From Archangium primigenium (GTDB lineage Bacteria; Myxococcota; Myxococcia; Myxococcales; Myxococcaceae), in NCBI RefSeq assembly GCF_016904885.1, contig NZ_JADWYI010000001.1, forward strand, positions 8,923,224 through 8,987,223: DNA of 64,000 nt, read 5' to 3'. This document shows positions 45,499 through 62,447 of the stretch, in pieces. The notes beneath the pieces are model-generated. The model was not told the origin of the DNA. It searched no databases and saw nothing but the letters and a program-made list of their open reading frames with translations. A program made the translations under genes and the position numbers. Each line of letters opens with the position of its first letter. Position 1 is the stretch's first letter.

Positions 45499-45508
45499 CC
45501 GTGCGATC

Positions 45509-45533
45509 CCCTCCGAGCGTCGCGAGCGGAGGG
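45509..45533. promoter_or_regulatory. Inverted repeat CCCTCCG...CGGAGGG upstream of sbcD
   Basis: 7-base perfect arms (45509-45515, 45527-45533) with an 11-base centre, starting 11 bases upstream of the sbcD ATG on the divergent side. The 236-base spacer to the acyltransferase shows no other clear signal. Could be an operator or a hairpin in the sbcD leader. Confidence 0.3.
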
Positions 45534-45734
45534 AGGGCTCCCCTGCCTGCTCGCACGTTCAGGCACGGGGCAGTGTGCCGGGGTGGGGCGCGATTGCCAA
45601 CCCCCGAGCGAGGCCTGTCCTCTTCCCTGGAGGGCGGGCGGCGGGGAGGCGGGTGGATGGACGGTGCGCGGACGAGGCCAGGCGGGCATCATGGCGGCGC
45701 CGTCCGTCCCCCCCTTTTCCACGAGCCCCACGAG

Positions 45735-46493: not shown

Positions 46494-46499
46494 GGCGCG

Positions 46500-47120
46500 T
46501 CACCCCTCGGCGCCGGACACCGCCGTGGAGCGCCAGAAGTACGTGGCGCCCTCGACCCCCGCCACGGACAGCCGCTGGAACCCCATGCGCTCGTAGAAGC
46601 GCACCGCGCGGAGGTTGCCGCTGCCCGTGCCCAGGTGCAGCGAGGGTGCTCCGGCCCGCGCCACGGCCGTGAGGAAGGTCTCCACCAGGCGTCGGCCAAA
46701 TCCCGCGCCCTGGGCCTCGGGCAGCAGGTCGACGTGCAGGTGCGCGGGATGGGGCGCCAGTTCGGGGAAGAGCTGGGCCTCGGGGCGATGGAGCAGGGCG
46801 ATGAGTCGCTCCTCGGCGGTGCGCGGCGATGCGACGGGCGGGGGATGACTTCCCGCCACGCGTGGCAGCCACCGCTCGCGCCACGCGGTCACGAACGCCG
46901 GCGTGTCCGCGGTGCCGAGCACATAGCCCACCACCCGCTCACCCGCGTCCAGCACGAACGCCCGCTCCGGCTCGAGCGCGAGGTAGGGGCCCGCGAAGAG
47001 GTCCGGCAGCAGCGCGTCGCGCGGGTAGTGTCCCCGGGCGTCCTCTCCATTGGCGCCCGTGCGCACACAGATGTCATACACCGCATCCCAATCGCCTGGC
47101 TGGTAGGGGCGAAGCCGCAT
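46500..47120 (-). CDS. GNAT-family N-acetyltransferase
   Basis: 206 residues. Opening MRLRPYQPGDWDAVYDICVRTG is a standard GNAT beta1-alpha1. The acetyl-CoA site is 'HLHVDLLPEAQGAGFGRRLVETF' near 128-150 (Q/R-x-x-G-x-G/A), followed by 'LHLGTGSGNLRAVRFYERMGFQRL', the usual closing strand-helix. The long middle segment (about 85-125) resembles the acetyltransferase-like domain seen in OGA-type proteins. Substrate unknown. A TATATA lies 12 bases upstream of the start, suggesting a very short leader. Confidence 0.82.
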   Translation of the reverse strand: MRLRPYQPGDWDAVYDICVRTGANGEDARGHYPRDALLPDLFAGPYLALEPERAFVLDAGERVVGYVLGTADTPAFVTAWRERWLPRVAGSHPPPVASPRTAEERLIALLHRPEAQLFPELAPHPAHLHVDLLPEAQGAGFGRRLVETFLTAVARAGAPSLHLGTGSGNLRAVRFYERMGFQRLSVAGVEGATYFWRSTAVSGAEG

Positions 47121-47160
47121 GGGACGCGCCTATATACCCGAGCCGCTGCGGGTGGGGACG

Positions 47161-47197
47161 CCAGCATTGACATCCCGCTTTTACGGGTTTTTGCTGG
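47161..47197 (+). promoter_or_regulatory. Nested inverted repeats over a TTGACA box
   Basis: Outer arms CCAGCA (47161-47166) and TGCTGG (47192-47197) enclose an inner CCCG/CGGG dyad and a consensus -35 TTGACA at 47167-47172. No convincing -10 follows at 17 bases. It lies about 45-80 bases before the propeller-like gene, so it may be an operator that blocks the promoter, or a hairpin with a T5 tail. Confidence 0.4.
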
Positions 47198-47241
47198 ACT
47201 TCCGGTCCACGTGGGACCGCGCTCGCCGACAGGTGCTCCCG

Positions 47242-48222
47242 ATGAAGCGACACAGGATGGTGGTGGCCATGGCCCTCGCGGGCGTGCTGGGTGGAAGCAC
47301 GGAGGCGCTCGCCGCGCCCCCCTCGGACGGGCCACGCGCCGAGCTGCATGGCCTCATCGAGAACGTCACCCAGGCCAATGCGCGCCGCTATGGCAGCCGG
47401 GACAGCATGGGCCGGACCATGGACACCGCCAAGCTCATCCAGGATCCCGCGGGTGGCTACCTGGCCGTCTACCACACGTATCTCAATGGAACGCCCCGCG
47501 TCAGCGTGGCCACCTCCGCGGACCTGCTCAACTGGACCTTCCAGCGGGAGCTCGGCACGCTCGCCTCCCAACCCCACATCATGGCGTTGCCCAACGGCGC
47601 CTATCTGCTGGCCTGGGAGCAGGAGCCCAACAACCACCTGGCGTTCCGCTACTACGCCACCCGGAACGATCTGCTCAGCGGCGTGGCCTCGCGCTCCTTC
47701 GACGCGCCACGCACCCTGTCCTCCTGCGCCGAGGGCACGCCCAACCTCTACTCGGTGACGCTGTCGCCGGACATCGACCACTCGGTCATCGAGGTGGGCG
47801 GCCACTACTACTGGAACTGTGACCGGGACCGGCAGCAGCGCGGACGGCTCACCAACTTCCGCGCCTGGAGCACGAGCGCCCAGGGCACCTTCGACAACGC
47901 CCTGCTGCACTGGGGCGTGGGCGGCAACATCGGGGACCGCGATGCCTTCGCCTACAAGTCGTTCACCTATGGCGTCATGGAGGGGCAGTACACGAAGAAC
48001 GACTTCGGCTCCTGGCGCGCGTTCATCTTCGACTATCAGACGGGCAACGCCGAGCCGCTCGCCATGCGCACCGACGCGGGCAGCACGGCGTTCGCCAATC
48101 CCTCGCTCACCGTGCTGACCGCGCCCAACGGACAGCGGGCCATCGCCGTCAGCATGTTCCTGCCCAGCGAGGGCGCCAAGGGTGGCGAGGCCGGCCAGCT
48201 CATCTACTATCGGACCTATTGA
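47242..48222 (+). CDS. Secreted protein with GH43/GH32-like beta-propeller features
   Basis: 326 residues; ATG at 47242 opens a signal peptide (MKRHRMVVAMALAGVLGGSTEALA). The text is regular beta-strand with repeated 'GGYLAVYHTYLNGTPRVSVATSADLLNWTF'-type blades; the S-x-D-L-x-N-W phrase is typical of five-bladed glycosidase propellers, where it recurs around the sugar site. No full catalytic triad was identified, so a carbohydrate-binding or inactive propeller is also possible. One Cys pair (SSCAEG and WNCDRD) might be a disulfide. It is followed by a stem-loop and a Tat oxidoreductase gene. Confidence 0.55.
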   Translation: MKRHRMVVAMALAGVLGGSTEALAAPPSDGPRAELHGLIENVTQANARRYGSRDSMGRTMDTAKLIQDPAGGYLAVYHTYLNGTPRVSVATSADLLNWTFQRELGTLASQPHIMALPNGAYLLAWEQEPNNHLAFRYYATRNDLLSGVASRSFDAPRTLSSCAEGTPNLYSVTLSPDIDHSVIEVGGHYYWNCDRDRQQRGRLTNFRAWSTSAQGTFDNALLHWGVGGNIGDRDAFAYKSFTYGVMEGQYTKNDFGSWRAFIFDYQTGNAEPLAMRTDAGSTAFANPSLTVLTAPNGQRAIAVSMFLPSEGAKGGEAGQLIYYRTY

Positions 48223-48227
48223 GCACG

Positions 48228-48250
48228 CCCGCGCGCACGCGGCGCGCGGG
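48228..48250 (+). terminator. Strong GC stem-loop after the propeller gene, no T-tract
   Basis: CCCGCGCGC (48228-48236), loop ACGCG, GCGCGCGGG (48242-48250), beginning 5 bases after the stop. The 9-base stem is very stable but has no U-run, so it may act as an mRNA 3' protector or a Rho-aided stop. 67 bases remain to the next GTG. Confidence 0.4.
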
Positions 48251-48316
48251 GTGGATTGCCGGAGCCGTCGAGGGCTGTTGGGGTGGACCCTTCCGCCCTC
48301 TCCCCCAGGAGCCCCC

Positions 48317-49528
48317 GTGTCCGACGAACCCCGCCCCGTCCCCTCCCGCCGTCTGTTCATGACTGGCTCGGTCCTCGGACTGGGCAGCCTGGTGGTGGCG
48401 GGCCGCGCCGACGCGAAGGACATCCCCACCGGGCCCACCGGCCGGCCCCAGCCCCAGCTCGAGCAGGAGCCGCCCCTGCCCGCGGACAAGCAGCTCGGCT
48501 GGGCCGTGGTCGGCCTCGGTCACTACGCCCAGCAGTACGTGCTGCCGGCGCTCGGCCGGGCGCGCCGCTCGAAGCTGACGGCGCTGGTGTCGGGCAACGC
48601 GGACAAGGCGCGCACCGTCGCCGCGCGCCATGGCATCAAGACGGCGAACCTCTACGGTTATGACACCCTGGGCCGGCTCGCCCAGAACCGCGAGGTGGAC
48701 GTGGTCTACATCGTCACGCCCAACTCCTCGCATGCCGAGCTGACGGTGAAGGCGTTCGAGGCGGGCAAGCACGTGCTGTGCGAGAAGCCCATGGCCAACT
48801 CCTCCGCCGAGTGCCAGCGGATGATCGACGCGGCCAAGGCGGCGGGCCGCAAGTTGATGATCGCCTACCGCGCGCACTGGGAGCCCCACAACGTGCGCGC
48901 CAAGGAGATGCGGGACGCGGGCGAGCTGGGCAAGGTCTGGTTCGCGTCGTCGGATCACCACCGGCCGCTCGACCCCTCGCGCCCGCGCGACCAGTGGCGC
49001 GTGAAGAAGGCCATCGCCGGGGGCGGCTCGCTGGTGGACATCGGCATCTACTCGCTCAACGGCCTGCAGTGGCTGCTCGGCGAGAGCCCGAACGCGGTGT
49101 CCGCGTCGATGTTCTCCCCGCCGGACGATGCGCGCTTCACCGAGGTCGAGAACGTCTTCACCGCCGAGCTCGTCTTTCCCTCGGGCGTGCGCGCCACCAT
49201 CTCCTCCGGATACACGGCGGACAAGAAGCGCATCGACCTGTGGGGGGACAAGCTCGTCGCGACGCTCGATCCGGCGACCGCCTACGACGGCAACCGGCTG
49301 ACGGTGAGCAACGCCCAGAAGGCGGAGGAGGTGCTGACCGAGAGCAGCGCCGAGCAGTTCACCGGGGAGCTCGACCACTTCTCCCAGGTCATCGCGGAGA
49401 AGGGCGAGGTGCGGACCCCCGGGGAGATGGGCCTGCGCGACATCCGCCTCATCGAGGCGCTCTACCGCGCGGCCTCCACGCGCACATGGGTGGAGCTCAA
49501 CGCCGACATGACGATGAAGAACGGCTAG
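48317..49528 (+). CDS. Tat-exported Gfo/Idh/MocA-family oxidoreductase
   Basis: 403 residues from a GTG at 48317, chosen because AGGAG lies 5 bases upstream and the protein then opens with a twin-arginine signal, SRRLFM at 10-15, and a hydrophobic stretch ending near GRADA. The mature part is a Gfo/Idh/MocA protein: Rossmann 'AVVGLGHYAQQYVLPAL', 'VYIVTPNSSHAELTVKAFEAGKHVLCEKPMAN' (the EKP motif), and the second-domain strand block with 'GGGSLVDIGIYSLNGLQWLLG'. Export of folded, cofactor-loaded protein resembles Zymomonas glucose-fructose oxidoreductase, so a periplasmic sugar redox role is likely. Its stop shares a CTAG with the convergent kinase gene. Confidence 0.85.
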   Translation: MSDEPRPVPSRRLFMTGSVLGLGSLVVAGRADAKDIPTGPTGRPQPQLEQEPPLPADKQLGWAVVGLGHYAQQYVLPALGRARRSKLTALVSGNADKARTVAARHGIKTANLYGYDTLGRLAQNREVDVVYIVTPNSSHAELTVKAFEAGKHVLCEKPMANSSAECQRMIDAAKAAGRKLMIAYRAHWEPHNVRAKEMRDAGELGKVWFASSDHHRPLDPSRPRDQWRVKKAIAGGGSLVDIGIYSLNGLQWLLGESPNAVSASMFSPPDDARFTEVENVFTAELVFPSGVRATISSGYTADKKRIDLWGDKLVATLDPATAYDGNRLTVSNAQKAEEVLTESSAEQFTGELDHFSQVIAEKGEVRTPGEMGLRDIRLIEALYRAASTRTWVELNADMTMKNG

Positions 49529-52437
49529 TCCGGGCTCAGGATGGCGCGCAGCCGCTCCGCCAGCACCTCGATGGCGAAGGGCTTGGTGATCATCTCCATG
49601 CCCTCGGCCAGGAAGCCGCCGCGCACCGCCGCGCCCTCGGCGTACCCCGTGATGAAGAGGACCTTGAGACCCGGTCGCTTCTGGCGCGCCACCTCCGCGA
49701 GCTGCCGGCCGTTCATCCCCGGCAGGCCCACGTCCGTGACGAGCAGATCGATGCGCGCGGGGCCCTCCAGGTGGGGCATCGCCTCCGGGGCGTTGCCCGC
49801 CTCCAGGGCCCGGTAGCCCAGGTCCGACAGCACGTCCATCACCACCATGCGCACGGACGGCTCGTCCTCCACCACCAGGACGGTCTCTCCCGCCAGCGCG
49901 CGGGGGGCCTCGCCCGTCGTCGTGCCCGCCAGCGCGGGCGCGAGCTCGGCCGCGTGCCGGGGCAGCAGCAGCGTGACGGCGGTGCCCTGGCCCACCTCGC
50001 TCTCGATGGACACGTGGCCGCCGGACTGGCGCGCGAACCCGTGGATCATCGGCAGACCCAGCCCCGTGCCCTGGCCCATGGGCTTGGTGGTGAAGAACGG
50101 CTCGAACGCCCGGGCCACCACGTGCGGTGGCATGCCCTGGCCCGTGTCCCGGACGCACACCCGCACGTAGTTGCCCGGCGCGAGCCCCTCGAAGGCCTGG
50201 GCGGCGGCCGCGTCCAGGTGCGTCTGGGACGTCTCGATCGTGAGCACCCCGCCGGTGGGCATGGCGTCGCGCGCGTTGATGACCAGGTTGAGCACCGCGC
50301 TCTCGAACTGACTGCTGTCGGTGAGCGCGGGGCCCAGCCCGGACTCGAGCGCCAGGCGCAGCGCGACCTTCTCACCCAGCGTGCGCTGGAGCAGATCCTC
50401 CAGGGCCGCCACCCGGGCATTGATGTCCGTGGGCTTCACGTCCAGCGATTGCCGACGCGCGAAGGCGAGCAGCCGGTGGGTGAGCGCGGCGGCGCGGTTG
50501 GCCGAGGTGACGGCCGCGTCGATGTAGCGCTGCGTGTTGTCCAGCTTGCCGTTGCGGATCCGCAGCCCGAGCAGTTGCAGTGCCCCGATGATGCCGGCCA
50601 GCAGGTTGTTGAAGTCGTGGGCGATGCCCCCGGTGAGCTGGCCCACGGCCTCCATCTTCTGGGACTGGCGCAGCTGCTCCTGGGTCCGCTCCAGTTCCTC
50701 CTGGTGCGCGTGCTCCTGGGTCACGTCACGCGCCATGCAATAGAACAGACCGTCCGCCGGCACGGCCAGCCACGAGAACCACCGGTAGGACCCATCCTGG
50801 TGGCGCAGGCGGTTGACCAGGCGGAGGTTGCCGCCCTGCGCGGACAACGTCTCGAGCTCCCCAGGCGTCTGGACCCGGTCCTCGGGGTGCACCAGCCACG
50901 ACACGTCCCGGCCGAGCAGCTCCTTCTCGGACCAGCCGAGCAGCTCCGTCCAGGCGGGACTGATGCTCAGCCAGCGCCCTTCCCGGTCGGTGATGAGGAA
51001 GGGCGCCTGGGAGAGCGCCCACAGGCGGTTGCGCTCCTGGGTCTGGAACGCGACGCGCTGCTCCAGGGTGGCGTTGAGCGCGCGCGATTCCGCCTCCACG
51101 CGGGCCCGGTCCACGGCCTCGGTCGTCCGCGAGGCCACGTCCTCGGCGAGCGCGATGTCCTCTGGAGGCCAGGGCCTCGCCCGGGGGTGGTGCAGACAGA
51201 GCACCGCGCGCAACCGCCGCGCCCGCAGGAGCGGCACCATCAGCACCGCGCGTCCCGCCGGGCACTGACCGTCGCGCGCCACCGTCCGCCCCCGGGCCAG
51301 CTCGGCGATGGACGCGGCGTCCATCGCCTCCAGCAAGGCCGACCCCTCGCCCCACTCCGCGAGCGGGGTCGCCGTGGCCGCCTCGGCGTCCACCTCGGCG
51401 TAGGCCACGCGGTGCAAGCTCAACTCCTGACCCAGCATCTCGGTCGCCACGGCCAGGATGTCCCGCGGACGCGAGAGCGTGCGCAACCGGTCCGAGAACG
51501 CCAGCAGGAAGGCCCGGCGCTGCTCGCCCTTGCGGCGCGCGTCGATGTCGAGCACCACGCCCGGAAAGCGCACGGCCCGGCCCTGGGCATCCCGCTCCAC
51601 GTGGCCATTGGCCTCGATCCACAACCAGGAGCCATCCGGCTGCCGGACGCGGAACTCGGCCCGGCTGGTGCCTCCCCGCTCGAGCGCCTGGGAGAGGTTC
51701 GCCTCGGCCCTGGCGAGATCCTCCGGATGGATGGACTGCACCACCTTCGCCATCGGGACGCCCACGGCGAGCTCCTCCGCCGAGAGCGTGGAGCGGCGCG
51801 CGAAGCGGGTGTCGGCGGTGAAGCGCTCGTGGACCACGTCCCAGGCCCAGAGGCCAATCACCGCGCCGGCCCCCAGCGCCAACTGGATGCGCTCGTTGGC
51901 CTCGCGCAGTTCCACCTCGGCGCGCTGGCGGCGCCGCTCCTCCAGCACGCTCGAGGTGTTCTCCGTCAGCACGGCCAGCACGCCCACGGGCCCCCCCTGG
52001 GCGTCGAGCAGGGGCGTGTAGAACAGATCCATCCACGCCTCCTCCCGCGTCCCGTTGCGGGAGAGGACGAGGGGCTGTTGCCTGAAGGACAGCGACTCGC
52101 CACGCAGCCCCGCGTCGAGGCCGCAGCGGTTGAAGTCCGCCGCCTCGGGCCACATCTCCAGGACCGAGCGCCCCAGGCTCCCGGGATGCCGAGTCCCCGA
52201 GAGGAGGGCATAGCCCTGGTTGTAGACGAGGTGCCCCTCGGCCCCCCACAGCAGGGCCATGGGCAGGGGCGAGCGCAGCAGGCTGTGGACCGTCGTCGCC
52301 AGGTAGGGGGGCCAGCCCTCCCGGGGGCCCAGGGGCGTGGTCGACCAGTCGAACTCCCGGACGCGCGTGGCCATTTCACCACCCGCGAGGACATCGAGAC
52401 GGCCAGAGTGAGCGGACATGGGGGGCGGAGGCGTCAT
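49525..52437 (-). CDS. PAS/GAF hybrid sensor histidine kinase with receiver domain
   Basis: 970 residues, soluble. Domains in order: PAS (about 25-165), PAS/PAC (about 175-300), GAF (about 315-455), PAS/PAC (about 475-600), HisKA with [11 protein letters not shown] near 602-612 (phospho-His about 606), HATPase with NLVINARDA and GTGLGLPMI, and a C-terminal receiver with the phospho-Asp in [13 protein letters not shown] near 901. The H-D-F-N-N box is typical of orphan hybrid kinases that signal by an internal phosphorelay. No cognate regulator is adjacent. The first ATG has no clear ribosome site; one six codons later is an alternative. Confidence 0.9.
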
Positions 52438-52553
52438 GGGGGCGCGAGGGACAGGCGGGGACCCCTCTTATCCATCCCCCCACCCGGGCACAATCAAGCG
52501 TCCTGAAGCCCGTCCAACGAACTCATGGCGATGTCGGACACTCGGGCGGGGGC

Positions 52554-52982
52554 TCACAGCCGCTCATCGGTCGCCGCGTCCGCCTGCCCGCCGAAGAACA
52601 CGTCGAGCACCCGCTGGAACAGGGCCTGGGAGGGCTCGGCGCGCAGGAACAGCGTCATCGAGGAGCGGAGCTTCTGCGCGTCGATGTCCCCGAGCAGGGC
52701 ATCCGCGGAGGGGGCGGACGACTCCGCCACGGCGCGCGCGCAATCGAGCAGCCTGGGCCCGAGCACCGGGTGGGCGAGATAGGCCCGCGCCTCCTCCAGC
52801 GAGCCGATCGCGAAGCGCTGGGCCATGGCGCTGCGGCCGAGCCCCGCCACCTGGGGGAAGACGAACCACATCCAGTGGGACGTCTTCCGCCCGCGGCGCA
52901 GCTCGGCGAGGGCCCGCGCGTAGGTGCCACCATCCTCTTGCGCCTGGACGAACCGGGCGAGGTCGTGAGGGTCGTTGCTCAT
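52554..52982 (-). CDS. DUF1810-family protein
   Basis: 142 residues from ATG at 52982, preferred to a start twelve codons upstream. The family pattern is clear: 'DLARFVQAQEDGGTYARALAELRRGRKTSHWMWFVFPQ' at the start, 'GLGRSAMAQRFAIGSLEEARAYLAHPVLGPRL' in the middle and 'SSMTLFLRA...FQRVLDVFFGG' at the end. DUF1810 proteins are small cytoplasmic alpha-helical proteins of unknown function. It is divergent from the GHKL ATPase across a 265-base spacer. Confidence 0.82.
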   Translation of the reverse strand: MSNDPHDLARFVQAQEDGGTYARALAELRRGRKTSHWMWFVFPQVAGLGRSAMAQRFAIGSLEEARAYLAHPVLGPRLLDCARAVAESSAPSADALLGDIDAQKLRSSMTLFLRAEPSQALFQRVLDVFFGGQADAATDERL

Positions 52983-53110
52983 CCCCGGGAGGCTATGCGC
53001 GGCCCCGGAGAAAATCACCCCACCGCACGGAGTACCCGACGCATGACCCGCCCTCGCTTCCGCCAGGGATTGGACCGACAGACGCGACAGGCACGGGGGT
53101 CAGGGCAACT

Positions 53111-53126
53111 ACCCCTCTTGGGGTAT
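53111..53126. promoter_or_regulatory. Inverted repeat TACCCC-TCTT-GGGGTA between DUF1810 and the GHKL gene
   Basis: A perfect 6-base dyad, 122-137 bases upstream of the GHKL ATPase start. The rest of the 265-base spacer holds a GGATGGAC direct repeat near 53211-53225 and a strong GGGAGGGG ribosome site before the ATG, but no clear -10 box. Confidence 0.35.
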
Positions 53127-53247
53127 GGGGCGCCGTTCAAACCAGTCGCTCCACTAAACAGGCGCGCAGGGGTGAGCCGCGCCCCACCCGCACGCCATTT
53201 CAGGCCCGTCGGGATGGACGTAGGATGGACGCCTCGGGAGGGGACTG

Positions 53248-55149
53248 ATGGCGTTCAAGCCAGTGCAATACAAAGAGGTCCAGAACTTCATCAATCGCGC
53301 GTACAACGAATGCCAGCCATTCCAGTGGGCACGTGAGACGTTGAAGAATGCCCTCGAAGCCGGCGCCACCCAGGTCCATTTCGGAGTCGAGTATCAGGCC
53401 GTCACGAACCTGGGCGTGTACCGTCGGCTCATCGCCGACAATGGCAAGGGGATGACGAGCAAGCAGTTGTACGACTACTTCTCGTACGCGGGCAGCGGGG
53501 AGAAGCGCATCGGCGGTGAACACGACAACTTCGGCATTGGCGCGAAGATTTCGCTGATGCCCTGGAACACCTACGGTCTTGTCATCGTGTCCTGGGTCGA
53601 GGGCTCGGCCTCGATGATCTGGATCCAGAAGGACCCGCGGACCGGTGAGTATGGACTTCGCGACTTCGAGGAGTTCGACGATGAGAACGTCGTAGAGCCC
53701 TTTGATGACCGCGAGCACGGATGTGATTGGCGCAAGGTCAAACCCGATATCATCGACCAGCACGGAACCGTCATCGTCCTGTTGGGCAACAGGCCCGAGG
53801 ACGACACCGTGCTCGGCGACCCGTCCAGGATCACCGAGAAGAGCGCCTCGAAGAACCTCATCCACTACTTGAATCACCGCTTCTGGACACTCCCCGACGG
53901 CGCCGAGGTCACGGTCAACCGGTTCCTGAACGACACCCATAAGCCCCACTGGCCCAAGACCATCCACGAGGGCCGCAGCTCCATCGAGGGGCTCATGCGC
54001 AAGGGCGCGTACATCGGTCTGTACGGGGGTCGGACGCACATCACCCAGGAGCGCAAGCGGGACAAGGCGGACGTGCGCACGGGCACCGTCGCGCTGAGCA
54101 ACAGCACACGCGCACACTGGTTCCTCCTCCGGAGCGGCGATCTCCCGGATGCCGCCCAGGGGCCCGCTCACAGCTTCATCGGGGTGCTCTACAAGGACGA
54201 GTTGTACAACGTGACCTCGCACCACTCCGCCTACCGCACGATGGGGGTCACACCGCAAATCGTCCGATCCCGGCTCTGGGTCATCATCGAGCCCCCCTTG
54301 GACAACCCCCCGGACGTGCGCGGTGTCTACCCGGAGAGCGCCCGAAGCGCGCTCAAGTGCTCGCTCACGCCAGATCTCTCGTTGCCCGTGAATGACTGGC
54401 TCGCGGAGTTCGCCAGGCACATGCCCGAGGAGATCCGCCAGGCGCTGGCGGCGGCCTTCGGCGAGCAGCGCGAGGAGTCCGGCCTGACCTCCAAGCTGAT
54501 GGAGCGCCTGTCGCAGTACCTTCAGCTCTGGGGCAAGAAGTTCAAGCAGCGCAAGTTGATGGTCGTCGAGGGTGGGGGCGCCGAGTCCATGGATCCCCAC
54601 ACGCCCCTGCCTGGGGGTCCAGGCGTCTCGGGCGACCCGGTTGACCCCCTCCTCCCGGACAGGCAGGGCGAGCGCCGGACACACACCCTCTCCGCGAGGA
54701 CGCCGAACGACACGCACGCGGAGGGCGGTGACCAGAAGAACGCGAGGCGCATCGAGCACCCACGTCAGCCTCCTCACATCCTCTGGCGGGAGAAGACGGA
54801 CTTCGAGGATCCCGAGAACCACTTCGCGCAGTGGATCGACGCGCAGAACGTCATTCAGCTCAACGAGCACCACCGCATCATCACCGAGCAGATCGAGCGG
54901 TGGCAGGCGCGCTACCCGGACCACCTCGCCGAAGAGGTGTCCATCAAGGTCCGCGAGGTCTACCAGGCCGCAGTGTTGAGCGTGTTCCTGGCCACGGAGG
55001 CCCTGAGCCTGGGCAAGTTCGATCGAGACAAGCGCTTCCGTTCTCCCGATGCGCTGACCGTCGCCCTGTTGGGCTACTTCCGCGAGGACGAGATCCTCCG
55101 GCAGCAACTGTCCTATTTGGGAAAAGCAAAGGGCGAGTCCGTGGCGTGA
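53248..55149 (+). CDS. Stand-alone GHKL (Hsp90/MORC-like) ATPase of unknown function
   Basis: 633 residues. The GHKL ATP site is complete: N-box ETLKNALEAGA (Glu30, Asn34), G1 box DNGKGM (64-69), and G2 GIGAK (96-100), preceded by 'YFSYAGSGEKRIGGEHDNFG', a lid segment like that of MORC/paraMORC ATPases rather than histidine kinases. No HisKA, receiver or transducer is present. Residues about 200-420 likely form an S5-type transducer fold, then a Pro/Gly-rich linker (about 445-510) and an acidic helical C-terminal domain. Bacterial paraMORC-type ATPases occur in restriction-like conflict systems, but no nuclease is adjacent. GGGAGGGG precedes the start. Confidence 0.65.
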   Translation: MAFKPVQYKEVQNFINRAYNECQPFQWARETLKNALEAGATQVHFGVEYQAVTNLGVYRRLIADNGKGMTSKQLYDYFSYAGSGEKRIGGEHDNFGIGAKISLMPWNTYGLVIVSWVEGSASMIWIQKDPRTGEYGLRDFEEFDDENVVEPFDDREHGCDWRKVKPDIIDQHGTVIVLLGNRPEDDTVLGDPSRITEKSASKNLIHYLNHRFWTLPDGAEVTVNRFLNDTHKPHWPKTIHEGRSSIEGLMRKGAYIGLYGGRTHITQERKRDKADVRTGTVALSNSTRAHWFLLRSGDLPDAAQGPAHSFIGVLYKDELYNVTSHHSAYRTMGVTPQIVRSRLWVIIEPPLDNPPDVRGVYPESARSALKCSLTPDLSLPVNDWLAEFARHMPEEIRQALAAAFGEQREESGLTSKLMERLSQYLQLWGKKFKQRKLMVVEGGGAESMDPHTPLPGGPGVSGDPVDPLLPDRQGERRTHTLSARTPNDTHAEGGDQKNARRIEHPRQPPHILWREKTDFEDPENHFAQWIDAQNVIQLNEHHRIITEQIERWQARYPDHLAEEVSIKVREVYQAAVLSVFLATEALSLGKFDRDKRFRSPDALTVALLGYFREDEILRQQLSYLGKAKGESVA

Positions 55150-55217
55150 GCGCCTCCAGACCCGCCCCGCCTCGGCTGCCCCAGGCAGCCGAGGGACGCG
55201 TCATCCCCTCGGGGGAC

Positions 55218-56117
55218 TTACTGCCACTGGAAGACGCGCACCCAGTCGACTTCCATGGACTGGGGCGTCTTGCGGATGAGGTCCAGCGTGGACTGCGGCA
55301 CGCCCGGGTACGGCGAGGAGGCGCCGTTCACGCCCTGCGGGTAGGAGCCACCCACCGCCAGGTTGAGGATGATGAAGAACTGCTTGTCATACACCCAGTT
55401 GCCGTAGCGGGTGACGTCGGCCTTGTTGACCTGCTTGACCTGCACGCCGTCGATGAACCACTTGATGTCCGAGGGCGAGTACTCCGTGCGGTACACGTGG
55501 AAGTTGCTCACCGACGAGTTCGGGTAGAAGCGCGAGTTGATGGGGGTGTTGCCCGAGTAGCCGGGGCCGTGCAGGGCGCCGGAGATCCAGTCGCCGTAGC
55601 CCACGTTCTCCATGATGTCGAGCTCACCGCACTGGGGCCAGCCAACCTGGTTGATGTCGCTGCCGAGCAGCCAGAAGGCCGGCCACAGGCCCGGGCCCAC
55701 CGGCATCTTGATGCGCGCCTCGATGCGGGTGTGGCCGAACTGGCGCTTGCCCGCGCTCTCCAGACGGCCCGAGGTGAACGGATAGCCGTTCTTGGACTCC
55801 GCGCGGGCGGTGAGCTTGAGCGTGCCGTTGCTCACCGACACGTTCGACGACGAGGTGGTGTACTGCTGCTGCTCGTTGTTGACGTGGATGTCGGTGATGT
55901 ACGACCAGTTGGACTGGTCCACGCTGGTGCCGTTGAACTCGTCGCTCCAGATCTGCACCCAGCCCGCGAGCTTCTGCTCCTGCTGCCCGGCCTGCTCCGG
56001 CGCGCCCTGCTCCAACTCGCCGCCACAGCCGGCGGCGAGCAGCATCGTGCCGCCAAGGCCCAACGCCAGGAAACGCTTCCAACCGCCTGAACGCTTCGAA
56101 TGGGTGATCGTGGTCAT
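55218..56117 (-). CDS. Glycoside hydrolase family 16 lipoprotein (beta-glucanase)
   Basis: 299 residues; ATG at 56117 with AGGCGCGCC upstream, preferred to one four codons earlier. A lipobox (LLAAGC, Cys31) and an acidic Gln-rich linker lead to the GH16 domain: WSDEFNG near 57-63, 'GRLESAGKRQFGHTRIEARIKMP', and the catalytic ELDIME (Glu165 nucleophile, Asp167, Glu170 acid/base) after 'PAFWLLGSDINQVGWPQCG'. It should cleave beta-1,3 or mixed-linkage glucans (laminarin, yeast wall) at the cell surface. An AT-rich promoter with repeated TGATTT lies upstream. Confidence 0.9.
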   Translation of the reverse strand: MTTITHSKRSGGWKRFLALGLGGTMLLAAGCGGELEQGAPEQAGQQEQKLAGWVQIWSDEFNGTSVDQSNWSYITDIHVNNEQQQYTTSSSNVSVSNGTLKLTARAESKNGYPFTSGRLESAGKRQFGHTRIEARIKMPVGPGLWPAFWLLGSDINQVGWPQCGELDIMENVGYGDWISGALHGPGYSGNTPINSRFYPNSSVSNFHVYRTEYSPSDIKWFIDGVQVKQVNKADVTRYGNWVYDKQFFIILNLAVGGSYPQGVNGASSPYPGVPQSTLDLIRKTPQSMEVDWVRVFQWQ

Positions 56118-56144
56118 GGCGCGCCTCATACCACGATTTCCCGC

Positions 56145-56175
56145 AAATCACGACTAAATGATTTATCCCTGATTT
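56145..56175 (-). promoter_or_regulatory. AAATCA/TGATTT repeats upstream of the GH16 gene
   Basis: TGATTT occurs at 56159-56164 and 56170-56175, 11 bases apart (one helical turn), with an inverted AAATCA at 56145-56150. They lie 28-58 bases upstream of the GH16 start, within a locally AT-rich patch that stands out in this GC-rich window. Spacing and repetition suggest regulator half-sites overlapping the promoter. Confidence 0.45.
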
Positions 56176-56229
56176 AACGCAATCCGTCACCTTGCGACAT
56201 CAAAGCTTTCCCCTCCGGCGGCACGGGGC

Positions 56230-57021
56230 TCACAGGCTGATGTAGCCCTCCAGGAAGAGCACGGCCTGGCCGGCGATGCCCACGCGCTCGCCGCGGTCCT
56301 CGCACTGGAGCACGCCGCCGCGCGCGGACACCTGGTGCGCGAGCAGCTTGGACTTGCCGAGCTCCCGGGCCCAGTACGGCACTAGCGAGCAGTGCGCCGA
56401 GCCCGTCACCGGATCCTCCGGCACGCCCACGCGCGGCGCGAAGAAGCGCGAGACGAAGTCCGCCTGGGCGCCCCGGGCGGTGGCCACCACCGCGAACACG
56501 TCCAGCGCGGCGAGCCTGCCCATGTCTGGATTGAGCGCCCGCACTTCCTCCTCGCTGTCGAAGACGGCCAGCAGGTCACGCGACAGCCACGTCTCCCGGG
56601 GCGTGGCGCCCAGGGCCTCGGCGAGCCCGTCTGGCGGCGCGCACGGCTCGGGCGGCCGCGAGGGGAAGTCCATCTCCATCCAACCGTCCTCGCCCTGCGT
56701 CACCACCAGGGGGCCCGAGCGCGAGTTGAACTGGGCCCGCTCCAGACCCGGCGCCAGCCGCGTGAAGAGGATATAGGCCGAGGCGAGCGTGGCATGGCCA
56801 CACAGGTCCACTTCCTGAAGGGGGGTGAACCAGCGGATCTGCCAGCCCCTCACCTCGTCGCGCAGCACGAAGGCCGTCTCGGACAGGTTGTTCTCCAGGG
56901 CGATGGCCTGGAGCACGTCATCCGGCAACCACGTGTCCAGCGGACACACCGCGGCGGGATTGCCTCCGAAGACCTGGGAGGTGAAGGCATCGACCTGGTA
57001 CAGGCGCAGACGGATGGACAT
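56230..57021 (-). CDS. PhzF-family isomerase-like protein
   Basis: 263 residues from ATG at 57021. The family signature is clear: 'YQVDAFTSQVFGGNPAAVCPLD' opening, 'ALENNLSETAFVL' with catalytic-position Glu48, 'WFTPLQEVDLCGHATLASAY', and the C-terminal 'APRVGVPEDPVTGSAHCSLVPYWA'. PhzF itself isomerises a phenazine precursor, but most family members have unknown small-molecule substrates; no phenazine genes are adjacent. The SDR gene lies 20 bases upstream on the same strand, so the two are probably co-transcribed. Confidence 0.86.
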   Translation of the reverse strand: MSIRLRLYQVDAFTSQVFGGNPAAVCPLDTWLPDDVLQAIALENNLSETAFVLRDEVRGWQIRWFTPLQEVDLCGHATLASAYILFTRLAPGLERAQFNSRSGPLVVTQGEDGWMEMDFPSRPPEPCAPPDGLAEALGATPRETWLSRDLLAVFDSEEEVRALNPDMGRLAALDVFAVVATARGAQADFVSRFFAPRVGVPEDPVTGSAHCSLVPYWARELGKSKLLAHQVSARGGVLQCEDRGERVGIAGQAVLFLEGYISL

Positions 57022-57041
57022 GGGTCGGTTCGGGGCCGGGG

Positions 57042-58561
<1,520 letters not shown>

Positions 58562-58573
58562 CCAGACAGACCT

Positions 58574-58595
58574 GGAAACATTTCCAAAGGGGAAA
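58574..58595 (+). promoter_or_regulatory. GGAAA/TTTCC dyads upstream of the phosphatase lipoprotein gene
   Basis: GGAAA (58574-58578), CA, TTTCC (58581-58585), then GGAAA again (58591-58595), giving two overlapping inverted pairs 34-55 bases before the ATG. Could bind a dimeric regulator or form a short hairpin after the preceding stop. Confidence 0.35.
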
Positions 58596-58628
58596 TGGGG
58601 GGGTTGCGCACCCGTTGCAGGCCCCACG

Positions 58629-60596
58629 ATGCACAAACCCAACCGATTGTTGTCCGTGTCCCGCCTGCTGGGTGTCTTGCTCGTCGCGGGCTGTGGTGAT
58701 TCCCCCGAGACCGACTCCGCGCTCCCGCCCGTCCCCTCCGCGTCCGAGCCCACGCCCATTGGAGGGGAGACGGACAAGGCCCCCTCCCAGCCCACCGAGC
58801 AGCCCGCCGAGGAGTCCTCCGGCGAGGAGGTGGGCAAGCCCAACGAGTCCGCCATCGTCGTGAGCAACTGCAACGTGTTGCCCACGCAGACCCCGTCCGC
58901 CAGCGGCGATGACGGCGATGGCAACGTGGCCAGCCACACCCAGGATGACAACCTGAGCACGCGCTGGAGCGCGCTGGGCAAGGGCGTGTGGCTCACGCTC
59001 GACCTGGGCAGCGCCCAATCCCTCTCCGGGGTCGCCGTCGCCTGGCATCAGGGCGACAAGCGCCAGAACCAGTACGTCCTGTCCACCTCCACCGACGGCG
59101 CCACCTTCACCCAGGCGGGCTCGGGCACGAGCGCCCTGACGACGGCCGCCCAGACGTATGCATTCTCCGCGGCGCGCACGGCGCGCTACGTGCGCGTCAC
59201 CGTCAATGGCAACACCGCCAACGACTGGGGCTCCATCACCGAGGCGCGTGCCTGTGGCGCGGGCGGGTCGTCGACTCCGACCCCGACCCCGCCGTCCTCG
59301 GCGGACTCCGGCCCCGCGCTGCCCCGCCAGCCCTACCTGCAGAGCGTGACCACCACGAGCGCCATCGTGGCGTTCCGCACCAGCGCCTCCTGCTCGCCCC
59401 TGGTGCGCTACGGCGAGGGCGCGGACGTGTCGCGCACGGCCACCGCCACCGCCACCGGCTGGCAGCACGCGATCAAGCTCACGGGCCTGTCCCCCGGCCG
59501 CACCTACAGCTACGTGGTGCAGGCGTGCGGCTCCACCACCGGCGTGCGCAGCTTCCAGAGCGCCACCGGCCCGGACACCCGCAAGGTGCGCTTCACCGCC
59601 ATGGGGGACTTCGGCACGGGTGGCTCGCTCCAGTCCAAGGTGCTCGCCCTGCTCGGCCAGTCCTCGCGCGCGGGTGAATTCCTGCTCACGCTCGGCGACA
59701 ACGCCTACTCCTCCGGCACCGAGGCGGAGTTCCAGAGCAACATGTTCAAGCCCATGGCGGCGCTGCTCCGGAGCACGCCCCTGTTCACCACGCCGGGCAA
59801 CCACGAGTACATCACCAAGAACGCCCAGCCCTACCTGGACAACTTCTACCTGCCCAGCAACAACCCCGCGGGCAGCGAGCGCTACTACTCCTTCGATTGG
59901 GGTCCGGTGCACTTCGTGTCGCTCGACTCCAACTGCTCCAGCTTCCCGACGGCCGAGTGCACCAAGGCGCTGCAGCAGGCGTGGGTGAAGCAGGACCTGG
60001 CGGCCACCCGCCAGCCCTGGAAGATCGTCTTCTTCCACCACCCCGTGTGGTCCAGCGGCGAGCACGGCTCGAGCACGAGCACGCGCAACGCCTTCGCCTC
60101 CCTCTTCGAGCAGTACGGGGTGGACCTGGTGCTCACCGGGCATGATCACAACTACGAGCGCTCCAAGCCGATGAAGGGCAGCGAGGTGGCGGCCTCGGGC
60201 ACGCGCGGCATTCCCTACCTGGTGGTGGGCAGCGGGGGCGCCACCCTGCGCCCCTTCGGCACCTCGCAGCCGAGCTGGTCCGCGTTCCGCGACAACACCA
60301 ACGTGGGCTACCTGGACGTGGCGGTGGACGGGGGCACGCTGACGGCGAAGTTCATCAGCTCCAGCAACGTCGTGCGCGACAGCCTCACGCTCACCAAGAC
60401 GGTGGCCAGCGGCGCGGACATCCCCCAGGCGCTCGCGGCCCAGCCCGCGGACAGCGCGCCCGTCCAGGGCCCCTGGTACGACCCCCACCGCCTGCCCGAC
60501 TTCCTCACGCCCGGGGTGGTGCCGCCCGCGGACACGCTGGAGTCGGTGGCGGACGCGCCCGAGCCCGCGCAGGGCTTCGTCCACGACCTGCCCTGA
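58629..60596 (+). CDS. Purple-acid-phosphatase-like lipoprotein with discoidin (F5/8) domain
   Basis: 655 residues. Lipobox LLVAGC (Cys22) and an acidic/Pro linker (about 25-75). Residues about 80-215 look like an F5/8 type C carbohydrate-binding domain (LSTRWSALGKGVWLTLDLGSAQSLSGV, YVRVTV). A fibronectin-III-like purple acid phosphatase N-domain (PRQPYLQSVTTTSAIV, RTYSYVV) is followed by the metallophosphatase with all motifs: GDFGTGG, GDNAYSSG, GNHEY, HHPVWSSGEHG and GHDHNYER. An extracellular phosphatase bound to polysaccharide is likely. The ATG at 58629 opens the signal peptide; a longer open frame upstream was not used. Confidence 0.88.
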   Translation: MHKPNRLLSVSRLLGVLLVAGCGDSPETDSALPPVPSASEPTPIGGETDKAPSQPTEQPAEESSGEEVGKPNESAIVVSNCNVLPTQTPSASGDDGDGNVASHTQDDNLSTRWSALGKGVWLTLDLGSAQSLSGVAVAWHQGDKRQNQYVLSTSTDGATFTQAGSGTSALTTAAQTYAFSAARTARYVRVTVNGNTANDWGSITEARACGAGGSSTPTPTPPSSADSGPALPRQPYLQSVTTTSAIVAFRTSASCSPLVRYGEGADVSRTATATATGWQHAIKLTGLSPGRTYSYVVQACGSTTGVRSFQSATGPDTRKVRFTAMGDFGTGGSLQSKVLALLGQSSRAGEFLLTLGDNAYSSGTEAEFQSNMFKPMAALLRSTPLFTTPGNHEYITKNAQPYLDNFYLPSNNPAGSERYYSFDWGPVHFVSLDSNCSSFPTAECTKALQQAWVKQDLAATRQPWKIVFFHHPVWSSGEHGSSTSTRNAFASLFEQYGVDLVLTGHDHNYERSKPMKGSEVAASGTRGIPYLVVGSGGATLRPFGTSQPSWSAFRDNTNVGYLDVAVDGGTLTAKFISSSNVVRDSLTLTKTVASGADIPQALAAQPADSAPVQGPWYDPHRLPDFLTPGVVPPADTLESVADAPEPAQGFVHDLP

Positions 60597-60618
60597 AGCG
60601 GCGTATAGGATGCGGTCC

Positions 60619-61647
60619 ATGAACCGCATGCACTGGCTGGACGCGCTCGCCGCGAGACTCGTGGCGGCGCGCCGGCCCCGCTTCTTCGAGGAGGGCTGGG
60701 GCTCGAGCGCGCTCCTGGAGAAGCTCATCCGGGCGCCCCAGGGCTTCGCCTTCCCGGAGCTGCACGAGGTGACCCTGGGCCCCGCGCGGCGCGAGGGCGC
60801 CCTGGTCGTCCAGGAAGGCCACTTCCCCAGCCCCGCGGCGGTGGGCTCCCTGCCCGAGGCGTGCGCGCGGGCCCGCTTCCAGTTCCTCTTGCCCCATGGG
60901 GCGGGGCCCCTGCCCCCGGTGTGCGTCTTCCTGGCGTCCTCGGGGGACGAGGGCTTCGGCCTGCGGCGCTTCCTCGCCCGGAGGCTCGCGCGCGAGGGCG
61001 TGGGCGCGCTGCTGCTGGAGAACCCCTACTACGGCGCGCGCCGCCCGCCCGGCCAGGTGGGCCCCGCGGTGCGCACGGTGACGGACCTGCTGCTCATGTT
61101 CCGCGCCACGGCGGTGGAGGCGACGGCGCTGCTCGGGTGGCTGCTGGCGCGGGGACACCCCAAGGTGGGCATCTCCGGCTACAGCATGGGCGGCAGCATC
61201 GCCGCCTACGCCGCGGCCATGTTTCCCCTGCCCGTGGCCGTCATCCCCCTGGCCGTGGCCGACTCCGCGGCCCCGGTCTTCACCGAGGGCGTGCTGTCCG
61301 CCGTGCCAGATTGGGACGCGTTGGGAAGCGCGCTCGGCGGCCCCGAGGCGGCGCGCGCGCGGCTGGCGGAGGTGCTCGCCGCCGTGTCCACCACCGCCCT
61401 GCCGCCCCTGAGCCAGCCGCGCCGCGCCATCCTCATGGCCGCGCGCAAGGACGGCTTCGTCCCCGCCGCCTCCACGCTGCGCCTCTTGCGGCACTGGCGG
61501 GGCGCGGAGCTGCGCTACCTGCCCGGCGGACACCTGAGCGCCTTCGTCACCGGCCGGGGCGCCATCGTGCGCACCGTGCTCGAGGCCTTCTCCCGGGTGG
61601 AGCCCCTCCAGGTGCCCCCCGAGGAGTCGCCCCCCGCGACGGCCTAG
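60619..61647 (+). CDS. ABHD18-family alpha/beta hydrolase-like protein
   Basis: 342 residues; the ATG at 60619 is preferred because AGGA lies about 8 bases upstream. The nucleophile elbow GYSMGGSIAAYAAAMFP near 190 and 'ENPYYGARRPPGQ', 'ILMAARKDGFVP' and 'YLPGGHLSAF' (Ser, Asp and His of a triad) fit the ABHD18 family, whose human member has been described only recently and whose bacterial relatives are uncharacterised. No signal peptide. It follows the phosphatase gene by 22 bases and may be co-transcribed. Its TAG shares a CTAG with the convergent coiled-coil gene. Confidence 0.7.
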   Translation: MNRMHWLDALAARLVAARRPRFFEEGWGSSALLEKLIRAPQGFAFPELHEVTLGPARREGALVVQEGHFPSPAAVGSLPEACARARFQFLLPHGAGPLPPVCVFLASSGDEGFGLRRFLARRLAREGVGALLLENPYYGARRPPGQVGPAVRTVTDLLLMFRATAVEATALLGWLLARGHPKVGISGYSMGGSIAAYAAAMFPLPVAVIPLAVADSAAPVFTEGVLSAVPDWDALGSALGGPEAARARLAEVLAAVSTTALPPLSQPRRAILMAARKDGFVPAASTLRLLRHWRGAELRYLPGGHLSAFVTGRGAIVRTVLEAFSRVEPLQVPPEESPPATA

Positions 61648-62447
61648 CGCTGCCGGTCCCCGGCGACCCGACCCTGGCCCTGGCCCTGCCGCGAGCCCTG
61701 CTGCCAGTCGCGGGGACGGCCGCGCTGCCACTCCTCGCGCCGCATGTCATCGTACTGGGCGCGCTGCGACTCGTCGAGCAGGGCCTTCACCTCGGTGTCC
61801 GTCTTCTCGCGCAGCTCGCGCATCTCCTGCCGCACGTCCCGGAACTCCTTGCCGCCCGAGCGCATGGTGTCGAAGAGGGCCTGGCGCTGGGCGTTCTCCG
61901 CGTCCAGGCGGCGCGTGACGTCGCGCTCCTGGGAGGAGCTCAGCCGCGCGTCGGAGGCGAAGCGGCGCAGGCGCTCGGTGCGCTGGGCCTGGACCTGCGC
62001 CTGGTCCTGCTCCACGCGCTGCTGGCGCGCCTGGAGCTGCTCGGTGCGCATCTCGTTCTGCACCGACACCATCATCTCCTTGAAGTACTGCCGTCCGCCC
62101 TCGGACTGGAGCGTCTGGCCCGTGCCCAGCCCCCGCACCTCCGCGCGCAGCTGCTCCACCTCCGCGGCCAGGGACGCCGGAGCACCCGCGCCCCCCGCGC
62201 CGCCCGGGCGCTGCTCGAGCAGCATCAGGCGCTTGGACAGGCTCAGCGCGTTGTCCTCGAGCAGCTTGATGCGCACCTCCAGGTCCTCCACCGACTCCTC
62301 CAGCTCGGGCGACGGGGCGGACCGGGCCGGCGGGGCGACGGCGACGGGCGGGGGCGCATCGACGGGCTCCGCTCGCGGCCCCCAGAGGGCCACGCCGAGC
62401 GCCAGGAGGGACACACCGAGGGAAGCAGGGCCAAGCAAGCGGTTCAT
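61644..62447 (-). CDS. Membrane-anchored coiled-coil hypothetical protein
   Basis: 267 residues. A hydrophobic N-terminus (GPASLGVSLLALGVALWG, about 6-23) is a signal anchor; a Pro/Ala linker leads to long heptad-patterned helices (about 48-80, 92-110 and 118-235), then a Gln/Arg/Gly-rich tail. The last helix, 'VKALLDESQRAQYDDM', resembles the end of Spy/CpxP-type periplasmic proteins, but other family features are not visible. No function assigned. GGAG lies 6 bases before the ATG. Divergent from the carboxylesterase gene. Confidence 0.6.
   Translation of the reverse strand: MNRLLGPASLGVSLLALGVALWGPRAEPVDAPPPVAVAPPARSAPSPELEESVEDLEVRIKLLEDNALSLSKRLMLLEQRPGGAGGAGAPASLAAEVEQLRAEVRGLGTGQTLQSEGGRQYFKEMMVSVQNEMRTEQLQARQQRVEQDQAQVQAQRTERLRRFASDARLSSSQERDVTRRLDAENAQRQALFDTMRSGGKEFRDVRQEMRELREKTDTEVKALLDESQRAQYDDMRREEWQRGRPRDWQQGSRQGQGQGRVAGDRQR

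What the first reader, a model, noticed from the sequence alone, without database searches (positions are those of the whole stretch)
53111..55149. Orphan GHKL ATPase with a MORC-like lid and no partner
A complete Hsp90-type ATP site (ETLKNALEAGA, DNGKGM, GIGAK) sits in a 633-residue protein with no kinase, receiver or topoisomerase features. Lid and length recall MORC/paraMORC ATPases that appear in bacterial conflict systems, yet its only neighbour is a small DUF1810 protein. The gene reads slightly less GC-rich than its surroundings. This is the best candidate here for an undescribed single-gene or two-gene system.
Basis: partly seen in the sequence, partly recalled or inferred. Interest (0 to 1): 0.6.

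Follow-up and report, generated by a model that had tools for sequence, protein, structure and literature searches.

The report
Solo ATPase shared with uncultured phages
A myxobacterial gene encodes an ATP-driven protein built like the MORC, MutL and Hsp90 machines, with a tail domain that matched no known family here; relatives lie among DNA-copying and DNA-packaging genes of uncultured phages and as lone genes in scattered bacteria, so it looks like an undescribed phage-bacteria gene family whose function is unproven.

Summary
The gene is real: window 53248-55149 (+), 633 aa (not from 53111). It has a complete GHKL ATP site, is the lowest-GC of 38 window genes measured, and has no conserved partner. 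It belongs to a full-length family (GHKL + transducer + a ~140-residue C-terminal domain) with no above-cut-off name in the libraries searched beyond the generic HATPase_c_3. Residues 6-405 fold like MORC3/4 (Z 19), barely above Hsp90 (18), then MutL and GyrB (15). It lacks the published MORC S5 motif and shares only the ATPase core with T4 rIIA, MutL and HtpG. DNA similarity to its two nearest relatives begins at the start codon and stops at the gene's end, so the conserved unit is one gene. Copies are patchy (8 of 195 genomes), their tree conflicts with taxonomy, and a same-genus genome keeps only a broken fragment. Best reading: an ATP-gated clamp of phage DNA metabolism, acquired by bacteria as a single-gene accessory, perhaps anti-phage. 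Family identity is well supported; function is inferred.

The parts
53248..55149 (+). Coding sequence of the GHKL ATPase, 633 aa
   Evidence: ORF list; Pfam PF13589; full-length homologues; DNA similarity to L014 and L023 starts exactly at 53248
53236..53243 (+). Likely ribosome-binding site GGGAGGGG
   Evidence: Read from the sequence
53248..54462 (+). Residues 1-405: GHKL ATPase domain plus transducer (S5-like) domain
   Evidence: AlphaFold2 model aligned over residues 6-405 to MORC3, Hsp90, MutL, GyrB
53332..53349 (+). N-box R29-E30 to N34 (RETLKN)
   Evidence: E30 and R29 in 56 of 56 rows with a residue there, N34 in 56 of 57
53437..53454 (+). Motif II D64-N-G-K-G-M69
   Evidence: D64 in 46 of 58, G66 in 56 of 58, G68 in 51 of 58
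53527..53547 (+). Glycine motif N94-F-G-I-G-A-K100
   Evidence: N94, G96, G98 in 58 of 58; K100 in 56 of 58
54343..54345 (+). R366 of the transducer domain, candidate nucleotide-sensing residue
   Evidence: 58 of 58; the role is inferred
54736..55146 (+). Residues 497-633: C-terminal domain of unassigned fold, conserved in bacterial and phage members
   Evidence: Model of residues 494-633 with pLDDT 89.7; no Foldseek PDB match at E up to 0.001; conserved in the family
55170..55194 (.). Perfect 11-bp inverted repeat with a 3-base loop after the stop codon, no T-run
   Evidence: Read from the sequence

Best explanation
The gene encodes a member of an undescribed GHKL-transducer ATPase family with its own C-terminal domain, shared by tailed phages and scattered bacteria. 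It most likely works as a homodimeric ATP-gated clamp: ATP closes the two N-terminal heads, the invariant R366 of the transducer domain senses the nucleotide, and the C-terminal domain holds the dimer or a partner, so that DNA or a DNA-protein complex is gripped and released. In phages it would serve replication, recombination or handover of the genome to the packaging motor. In this myxobacterium and other bacteria it is a horizontally acquired single-gene accessory, more likely than not acting against, or in competition with, phage DNA. Shown here: the family, the conserved ATP site, the predicted fold, the phage gene contexts and the single-gene conserved unit. Inferred: dimerisation, DNA as substrate, the role of R366 and the anti-phage role.
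For: Full-length homology of bacterial and phage copies (profile against profile E 2.9e-42 over 525 columns with the phage group that holds the gp32/UvsX loci). Conserved ATP site and R366. Fold like MORC3/4, Hsp90, MutL and GyrB over residues 6-405. Phage copies directly beside a TerS, SSB, gp32, UvsX, Thy1, dCMP deaminase or DNA methylase gene in 22 of 31 anchored viral loci, 7 of 14 lineages at 40% identity, against 59 of 342 other genes of the same loci. DNA similarity confined to the coding sequence. Patchy occurrence, tree in conflict with taxonomy, decayed fragment in a same-genus genome, lower GC than its flanks in 20 of 22 loci. Published precedent of a single-gene GHKL defence with a clamp-like model: VcSduA (PMC12137116, passages).
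Against: No DNA-binding motif was found and the window protein's three regions are net negative (-5, -2, -2). No nuclease or other effector domain is recognisable, so an anti-phage action has no visible weapon. Few mobile or defence families recur in 140 bacterial neighbours. The best PADLOC match is E 0.027. Seven of 14 phage lineages show none of the ten markers within six genes, and the markers were chosen because they recur there, so the comparison is partly circular. Hsp90 is nearly as similar in fold, and Hsp90s are the best PDB sequence matches of the family profile (core only).
Confidence: 0.42

Rival explanations
1. Bacterial copies are phage-derived or mobile genes kept for a cellular job (chromosome handling, repair) or for no selected job, without anti-phage action.
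For: Mostly ordinary chromosomal neighbours; the ATP site stays intact in bacterial copies over wide divergence, which fits some selected job; one fragmentary copy shows that loss is tolerated.
Against: Patchy occurrence in the order does not fit a core cellular job; an intact ATP site does not fit lack of function.
Confidence: 0.24
2. It is a MORC/paraMORC component of a restriction-modification system that loops DNA for nuclease partners, as proposed by Iyer et al. 2008.
For: GHKL plus S5-like architecture; a DNA methylase gene directly upstream in L035 and L046 (C5) and L028 (N4/N6), 3 of 26 bacterial loci; Dam-type methylase beside phage copies L074 and L083 and near L054.
Against: MORC S5 motif absent from the S5 region in 58 of 58. 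DEAD-helicase model matched by only 2 of 140 neighbours; families matched by two or more neighbours include no nuclease. No methylase, helicase or nuclease beside the window gene.
Confidence: 0.13
3. It is a relative of phage rIIA, a GHKL protein linked to exclusion or counter-defence, stranded in bacteria.
For: rIIA proteins are GHKL ATPases with variable C-termini in many phages (PMC7824862, passages); several RIIA-labelled proteins and phage topoisomerases are among the best viral structural matches.
Against: Profile comparison with seven rIIA proteins aligns 97 columns of the ATPase core only (E 2.7e-7), no better than E. coli MutL (1.1e-7) or HtpG (8.7e-9). T4 rIIA finds 2845 of 50,697 phage records, four members of this family find none.
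Confidence: 0.1
4. It is an Hsp90-like chaperone for protein clients, in phages for the replication or packaging machinery.
For: Hsp90 Z 18.1 against MORC3 19.2; Hsp90s are the best PDB sequence matches of the family profile (TRAP1 2.7e-5, core only).
Against: hhalign with E. coli HtpG aligns 85 core columns only; no HSP90 Pfam hit; the C-terminal domain has no good structural match, its best HtpG C-terminal match being Z 3.5.
Confidence: 0.11

Closest known systems
Eukaryotic MORC ATPases (MORC2, MORC3, MORC4)
   Same: GHKL head followed by a transducer/S5 domain; best structural matches (MORC3 Z 19.2, rmsd 3.9, 302 aligned; MORC4 Z 19.1, rmsd 3.9, 296 aligned; MORC2 Z 17.4, rmsd 4.0, 310 aligned)
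   Different: No CW zinc-finger hit in Pfam and no MORC S5 motif; sequence identity 9-14% in the listed MORC alignments
paraMORC families of prokaryotes (Iyer et al. 2008), including paraMORC3-type VcSduA
   Same: GHKL plus S5 proteins with family-specific C-terminal extensions, sporadic and mobile; VcSduA is a single-gene anti-phage ATPase (PMC2292703 and PMC12137116)
   Different: No DUF4263, TIR or other nuclease domain detected at the C-terminus; no R-M operon at the window; also occurs on phage contigs
T4 rIIA family
   Same: Phage-encoded GHKL ATPase with a different C-terminal part
   Different: Similarity limited to 97 columns of the ATPase core
MutL and Hsp90/HtpG
   Same: Same ATPase core and two-domain N-terminal architecture (Z 15.3 and 18.1)
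   Different: Detected sequence similarity ends within the ATPase core
phrog_6203, phrog_24466, phrog_23723 (unknown function)
   Same: Weak matches to the ATPase core of some phage members (best E 2.3e-4)
   Different: Only 49-68 residues of 597-932-position profiles match; the window protein matches none at E up to 0.01

Membership tests
GHKL ATPase superfamily | N-box glutamate/asparagine, DxGxG and glycine motifs of the nucleotide site | tested here: met
   PF13589 above cut-off; motif columns conserved
GHKL branch with S5/transducer domain (GyrB, MutL, Hsp90, MORC) | Second S5-like domain with a conserved basic residue | tested here: met
   Model aligns over residues 6-405 to MORC, Hsp90, MutL and GyrB; R366 in 58 of 58; contact with ATP not shown
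MORC | S5-domain motif GhXhhpXXRhl of Iyer et al. 2008 | tested here: not met
   Pattern scan of 58 members: no hit in the S5 region; two hits (L060, L065) at position 46, in the GHKL domain
MORC | Morc6_S5 Pfam domain (PF17942) | tested here: inconclusive
   Not among Pfam hits at E up to 1; the genome search rang nowhere, controls included
MORC / paraMORC | Neighbouring superfamily II helicase, nuclease and methylase genes | tested here: not met
   DEAD helicase model in 2 of 140 neighbours of 26 loci, no nuclease family in two or more (25 of 161 families shown); methylase directly upstream in 3 of 26 loci; none beside the window gene
paraMORC3 / Shedu (VcSduA) | C-terminal PD-(D/E)xK nuclease (DUF4263) | tested here: not met
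   No such Pfam match in the protein at E up to 1 nor in 30 C-terminal domains at E up to 0.1
paraMORC1, 2, 4, 5 | Family-specific sequences and C-terminal extensions | not tested
   Reference sequences were not fetched; only their descriptions were read in PMC2292703
T4 rIIA | Homology along the protein beyond the ATPase core | tested here: not met
   97 columns of core only against a profile of seven rIIA proteins, three of them partial
Hsp90/HtpG | HSP90 middle and C-terminal sequence homology | tested here: not met
   85 core columns only; no HSP90 Pfam hit
MutL | MutL equivalog model | tested here: not met
   TIGR00585 12.7 bits against a cut-off of 180
Known anti-phage defence system | Match to a PADLOC model | tested here: not met
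   Only HEC-02B at E 0.027, 12.3 bits; PADLOC-DB is of 2023

The most novel reading that the evidence does not exclude
An undescribed MORC/MutL-like ATP-gated DNA clamp is a working part of the replication-recombination-packaging module of several groups of uncultured tailed phages (TerS-clamp-TerL; gp32-clamp-UvsX), and bacteria of many phyla have captured it as a stand-alone gene that turns the phage's own genome-handling device against invading phages.
Probability: 0.25. Interest if true: 0.78.

Novelty: new variant of a known kind. Interest (0 to 1): 0.52.

Why it matters
GHKL machines drive mismatch repair, topoisomerases and MORC chromatin silencing, and one published single-gene phage defence. 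A family of them that occurs both beside SSB, UvsX and terminase genes of uncultured phages and as a lone bacterial gene would be an unrecognised DNA-handling factor of phages, bears on where prokaryotic MORC-like proteins come from, and is one gene that can be tested for anti-phage action directly.

Tried and rejected
Partner gene: all-against-all comparison of neighbours in the window and 11 loci and in 72 sources gave no bacterial family that follows the ATPase. Broad gene families recur at varying positions: a cluster that includes the histidine kinase at window 49525-52437 (six loci) and another of seven loci; neither keeps its place. L035 and L046 share an upstream C5 methylase. DUF1810 as partner: rejected. 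Empty-site test: failed, because in none of the three other same-genus genomes do the flanks match as one block. No tRNA in window 45000-62000.

Prophage residence of the bacterial copies: not supported. PHROGs families matched by two or more of 140 neighbours include integrases, methylases and helicases but no virion genes; of 106 families only 25 are shown, so single matches are partly unseen. The same cap holds for Pfam (25 of 161) and PADLOC (25 of 176).

C-terminal domain: no Foldseek PDB match with E up to 0.001. Ten of the 50 rows shown (best E 0.65) are a M. tuberculosis regulator (6cyj, 6d2s, 6cyy, 6cz6), abylysin, selecase and IrrE/PprI, which I recall as gluzincin-fold proteins; VIA gives those of them that it lists Z under 3, and HExxH is absent from 58 of 58 members. 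Kept only as a lead. PDB sequence search with its profile: best E 0.19.

HtpG control: the first comparison used a cut CDS lacking the ATPase domain and was discarded; repeated whole. The first genome-contig scan with the single protein found nothing; the alignment scan found 31 loci. Two more viral scans returned mostly the same contigs and were not analysed further. The plasmid search gave two records, one covering only 35% of the query.

Rows left out: from the tree, L021 and L022 (other GHKL proteins), L029, L030, L057 and L075 (truncated) and six duplicates (58 of 64 kept). L085 and L049 had no called ATPase ORF and are not in the neighbour counts (31 of 32 viral loci). For A2 and A3 I chose 33 and 30 of the 64 sequences available from the window; in A5 56 of 67 listed neighbours were used. 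Tree warning: several phage rows have long branches and the program says such joins may be false.

Marker control: beside the ATPase 22 of 31, beside other non-marker genes of the same loci 59 of 342. The markers were picked because they recur in these loci, and virus contigs are themselves called virus partly by such genes (my knowledge), so this is no independent test.

Literature: 10 searches listed no paper whose title or shown abstract describes this family; only open-licence PMC papers are covered and most listed papers were not opened. Of the four papers holding GHKL, phage and terminase, passages of three were seen: PMC7824862 (rIIA and phage topoisomerases), PMC5336643 (a reference only), PMC3901668 (a phage AgrC-like kinase); the fourth was not opened.

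Full report
Observation. The ORF is real: 53248-55149 on the + strand, 633 residues, ATG start with GGGAGGGG just upstream. The finding's start, 53111, lies in the intergenic region. A perfect 11-bp inverted repeat follows the stop. Pfam sees HATPase_c_3 above its cut-off and DUF5810 below; NCBIfam and PADLOC give nothing near a cut-off or a significant E-value, and no PDB sequence matches the single protein at E up to 1. The gene is single-copy in its 9.49-Mb genome; nine other places there match HATPase_c_3 and were not examined. It is the lowest-GC gene of 38 window genes of 150 aa or more (0.637, z -2.6), while GC3 (z -1.0) and codon usage (z -1.5) are only mildly off. In 20 of 22 relatives' loci measured the gene is lower in GC than its flanks, in five of them by 0.013 or less.

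Family. The protein found 9 of 145 genomes of the order, 7 with matches better than 1e-60, the own one included. A profile of ten homologues matched 65 of 195 genomes of the phylum at E up to 1e-3, but only 8 with E below 1e-100, and the next best is 1e-11; I take the weak ones for other GHKL proteins, apart from a fragment in G073, and did not examine them singly. The profile reached 31 loci in bacterial genomes of many phyla and 32 virus contigs; tblastn found two plasmids. A profile of bacterial members alone matches phage proteins along most of their length (L054 2.5e-162, L065 2.1e-79, L059 2.4e-67, L078 3.1e-23). Profile-profile comparison with the phage group that holds the gp32/UvsX loci gives E 2.9e-42 over 525 columns, C-terminal domain included. 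Across 58 aligned members N94, G96, G98, E318, R366 and P393 are invariant and E30 is present wherever there is a residue. D64 is N in nine and G in three: N in the seven rows of that phage group, in phage L077 and plasmid L013, G in three Methylococcaceae copies.

Structure. AlphaFold2 with 33 sequences gives mean pLDDT 78.8; parts of the lid (83-93) and of 406-503 are low. Residues 6-405 match MORC3 (Z 19.2, rmsd 3.9, 302 aligned), MORC4 (19.1, 3.9, 296), yeast Hsp90 (18.1, 4.3, 274), SMCHD1 (17.8, 4.7, 318), MORC2 (17.4, 4.0, 310), MutL (15.3, 4.2, 290) and GyrB (15.2, 5.9, 308). The lead of MORC over Hsp90 is about one Z unit, so the fold does not assign a family. Among PDB sequences the family profile matches Hsp90 best (2.7e-5, ATPase core only). 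Viral structure matches include topoisomerases and several RIIA proteins, with query TM-scores of 0.40 or less in the rows shown. The C-terminal domain alone is well modelled (pLDDT 89.7; three strands, five helices) but has no good PDB match (best Foldseek E 0.65, best Z 3.9) and only sub-threshold Pfam matches.

Conserved unit. Against the two nearest relatives (73-74% DNA identity) similarity starts exactly at the ATG and ends at 55124 or 55137, with no other match in the 5.9 kb compared. Myxobacterial copies fall in separate parts of the tree: two with the window, three others in a well supported group (100/99) with Planctomycetota and Rickettsiales MAGs, further single copies elsewhere. 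Archangium violaceum Cb vi76 holds two deeply different copies (L023 and L032). A same-genus genome (G073) holds a frame-broken fragment, 92% and 68% identical in its two pieces to the second kind. DUF1810 relatives occur in two, GH16 relatives in three of the three other same-genus genomes, away from any intact ATPase.

Phage context. In 22 of 31 anchored viral loci a marker gene (TerS, TerL, SSB, gp32, UvsX, Thy1, dCMP deaminase or a DNA methylase) lies directly beside the ATPase in called gene order. Many contigs are near-duplicates: at 40% identity there are 14 lineages, 7 with a marker. Two arrangements dominate. One has a terminase small-subunit gene before and a terminase large-subunit-like gene after the ATPase, often with SSB and Thy1. 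The other has a gp32-like SSB before and UvsX after it. L054, on a 362-kb contig, has dCMP deaminase and a D12-class adenine methylase directly downstream. Among 56 neighbours on five further-examined contigs PHROGs names helicases, an exonuclease, thymidine kinase, Erf and replication initiators, without telling the contig. Other non-marker genes in the viral loci adjoin a marker in 59 of 342 cases, but the markers were chosen because they recur, so this is not an independent test. No record of 50,697 deposited phages matches four family members by tblastn, whereas T4 rIIA finds 2845.

Bacterial context. Among 140 neighbours (within three genes, 85 to under 1000 aa) of 26 bacterial loci, 4 match phage integrase, 2 C5 methylase and 2 DEAD helicase, and most families occur once. 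A methylase gene is directly upstream in L035 and L046 (C5) and L028 (N4/N6). This weakly recalls the R-M link of MORCs and paraMORCs (PMC2292703, parts 1-3 of 4 read), but without a recurrent helicase or nuclease, and nothing of the kind is at the window.

Interpretation. The anatomy (ATP site, transducer with an invariant basic residue, separate C-terminal domain) is that of ATP-gated dimeric GHKL clamps. The phage context makes DNA the likeliest substrate. MORC2 shows how such a protein clamps and compacts DNA (PMC12216690, passages), and VcSduA shows that a lone GHKL protein can defend a cell (PMC12137116, passages), there with a nuclease that is not found here. I therefore favour an ATP-gated DNA clamp of phage DNA metabolism taken up by bacteria as a one-gene accessory, with an anti-phage role likelier than housekeeping but unproven. 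The net negative charge, the lack of a recognisable DNA-binding or effector motif and the near tie with Hsp90 speak against certainty.

Known or new. The superfamily is known and the architecture is of the loose paraMORC grade, but the MORC motif is absent, rIIA, MutL and HtpG share only the ATPase core, and the libraries searched hold no specific model for it. The literature searches named under Tried and rejected listed no description of it. Hence a new variant of a known kind.

Noticed in passing
L128 (G073 contig 41), about 8326-8792 of the locus: A same-genus genome carries a frame-broken fragment of the sister subfamily (two pieces, 92% and 68% identical to the Archangium L020 copy), a decaying copy.
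   Followed up: partly
Phage loci L074, L076, L078, L081, L082, L083, L084 and L077; plasmid locus L013; L050, L052, L053: The motif-II aspartate (D64) is N in the phage and plasmid rows and G in three Methylococcaceae copies; most also change G68 or T174, while E30, N94, G96, G98 and R366 stay where a residue is present. They may bind ATP differently or not hydrolyse it.
   Followed up: no
window 54736-55146: The C-terminal domain shows a weak, repeated Foldseek resemblance to proteins I recall as gluzincin-fold (IrrE/PprI, abylysin, selecase, a M. tuberculosis regulator) without any HExxH motif.
   Followed up: partly
L054 10001-13449; also L074 and L083: On a 362-kb virus contig the ATPase gene is followed by dCMP deaminase and a D12-class adenine methylase; a relative of that methylase directly follows the ATPase in L074 and L083 too.
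   Followed up: no
window 55170-55194: Perfect 11-bp inverted repeat between the convergent ATPase and GH16 genes, without a T-run.
   Followed up: no
L013 8002-12072: A distant plasmid copy in Antarctic Acidisoma lies downstream of transposase genes and is followed by a tetratricopeptide-repeat gene.
   Followed up: no
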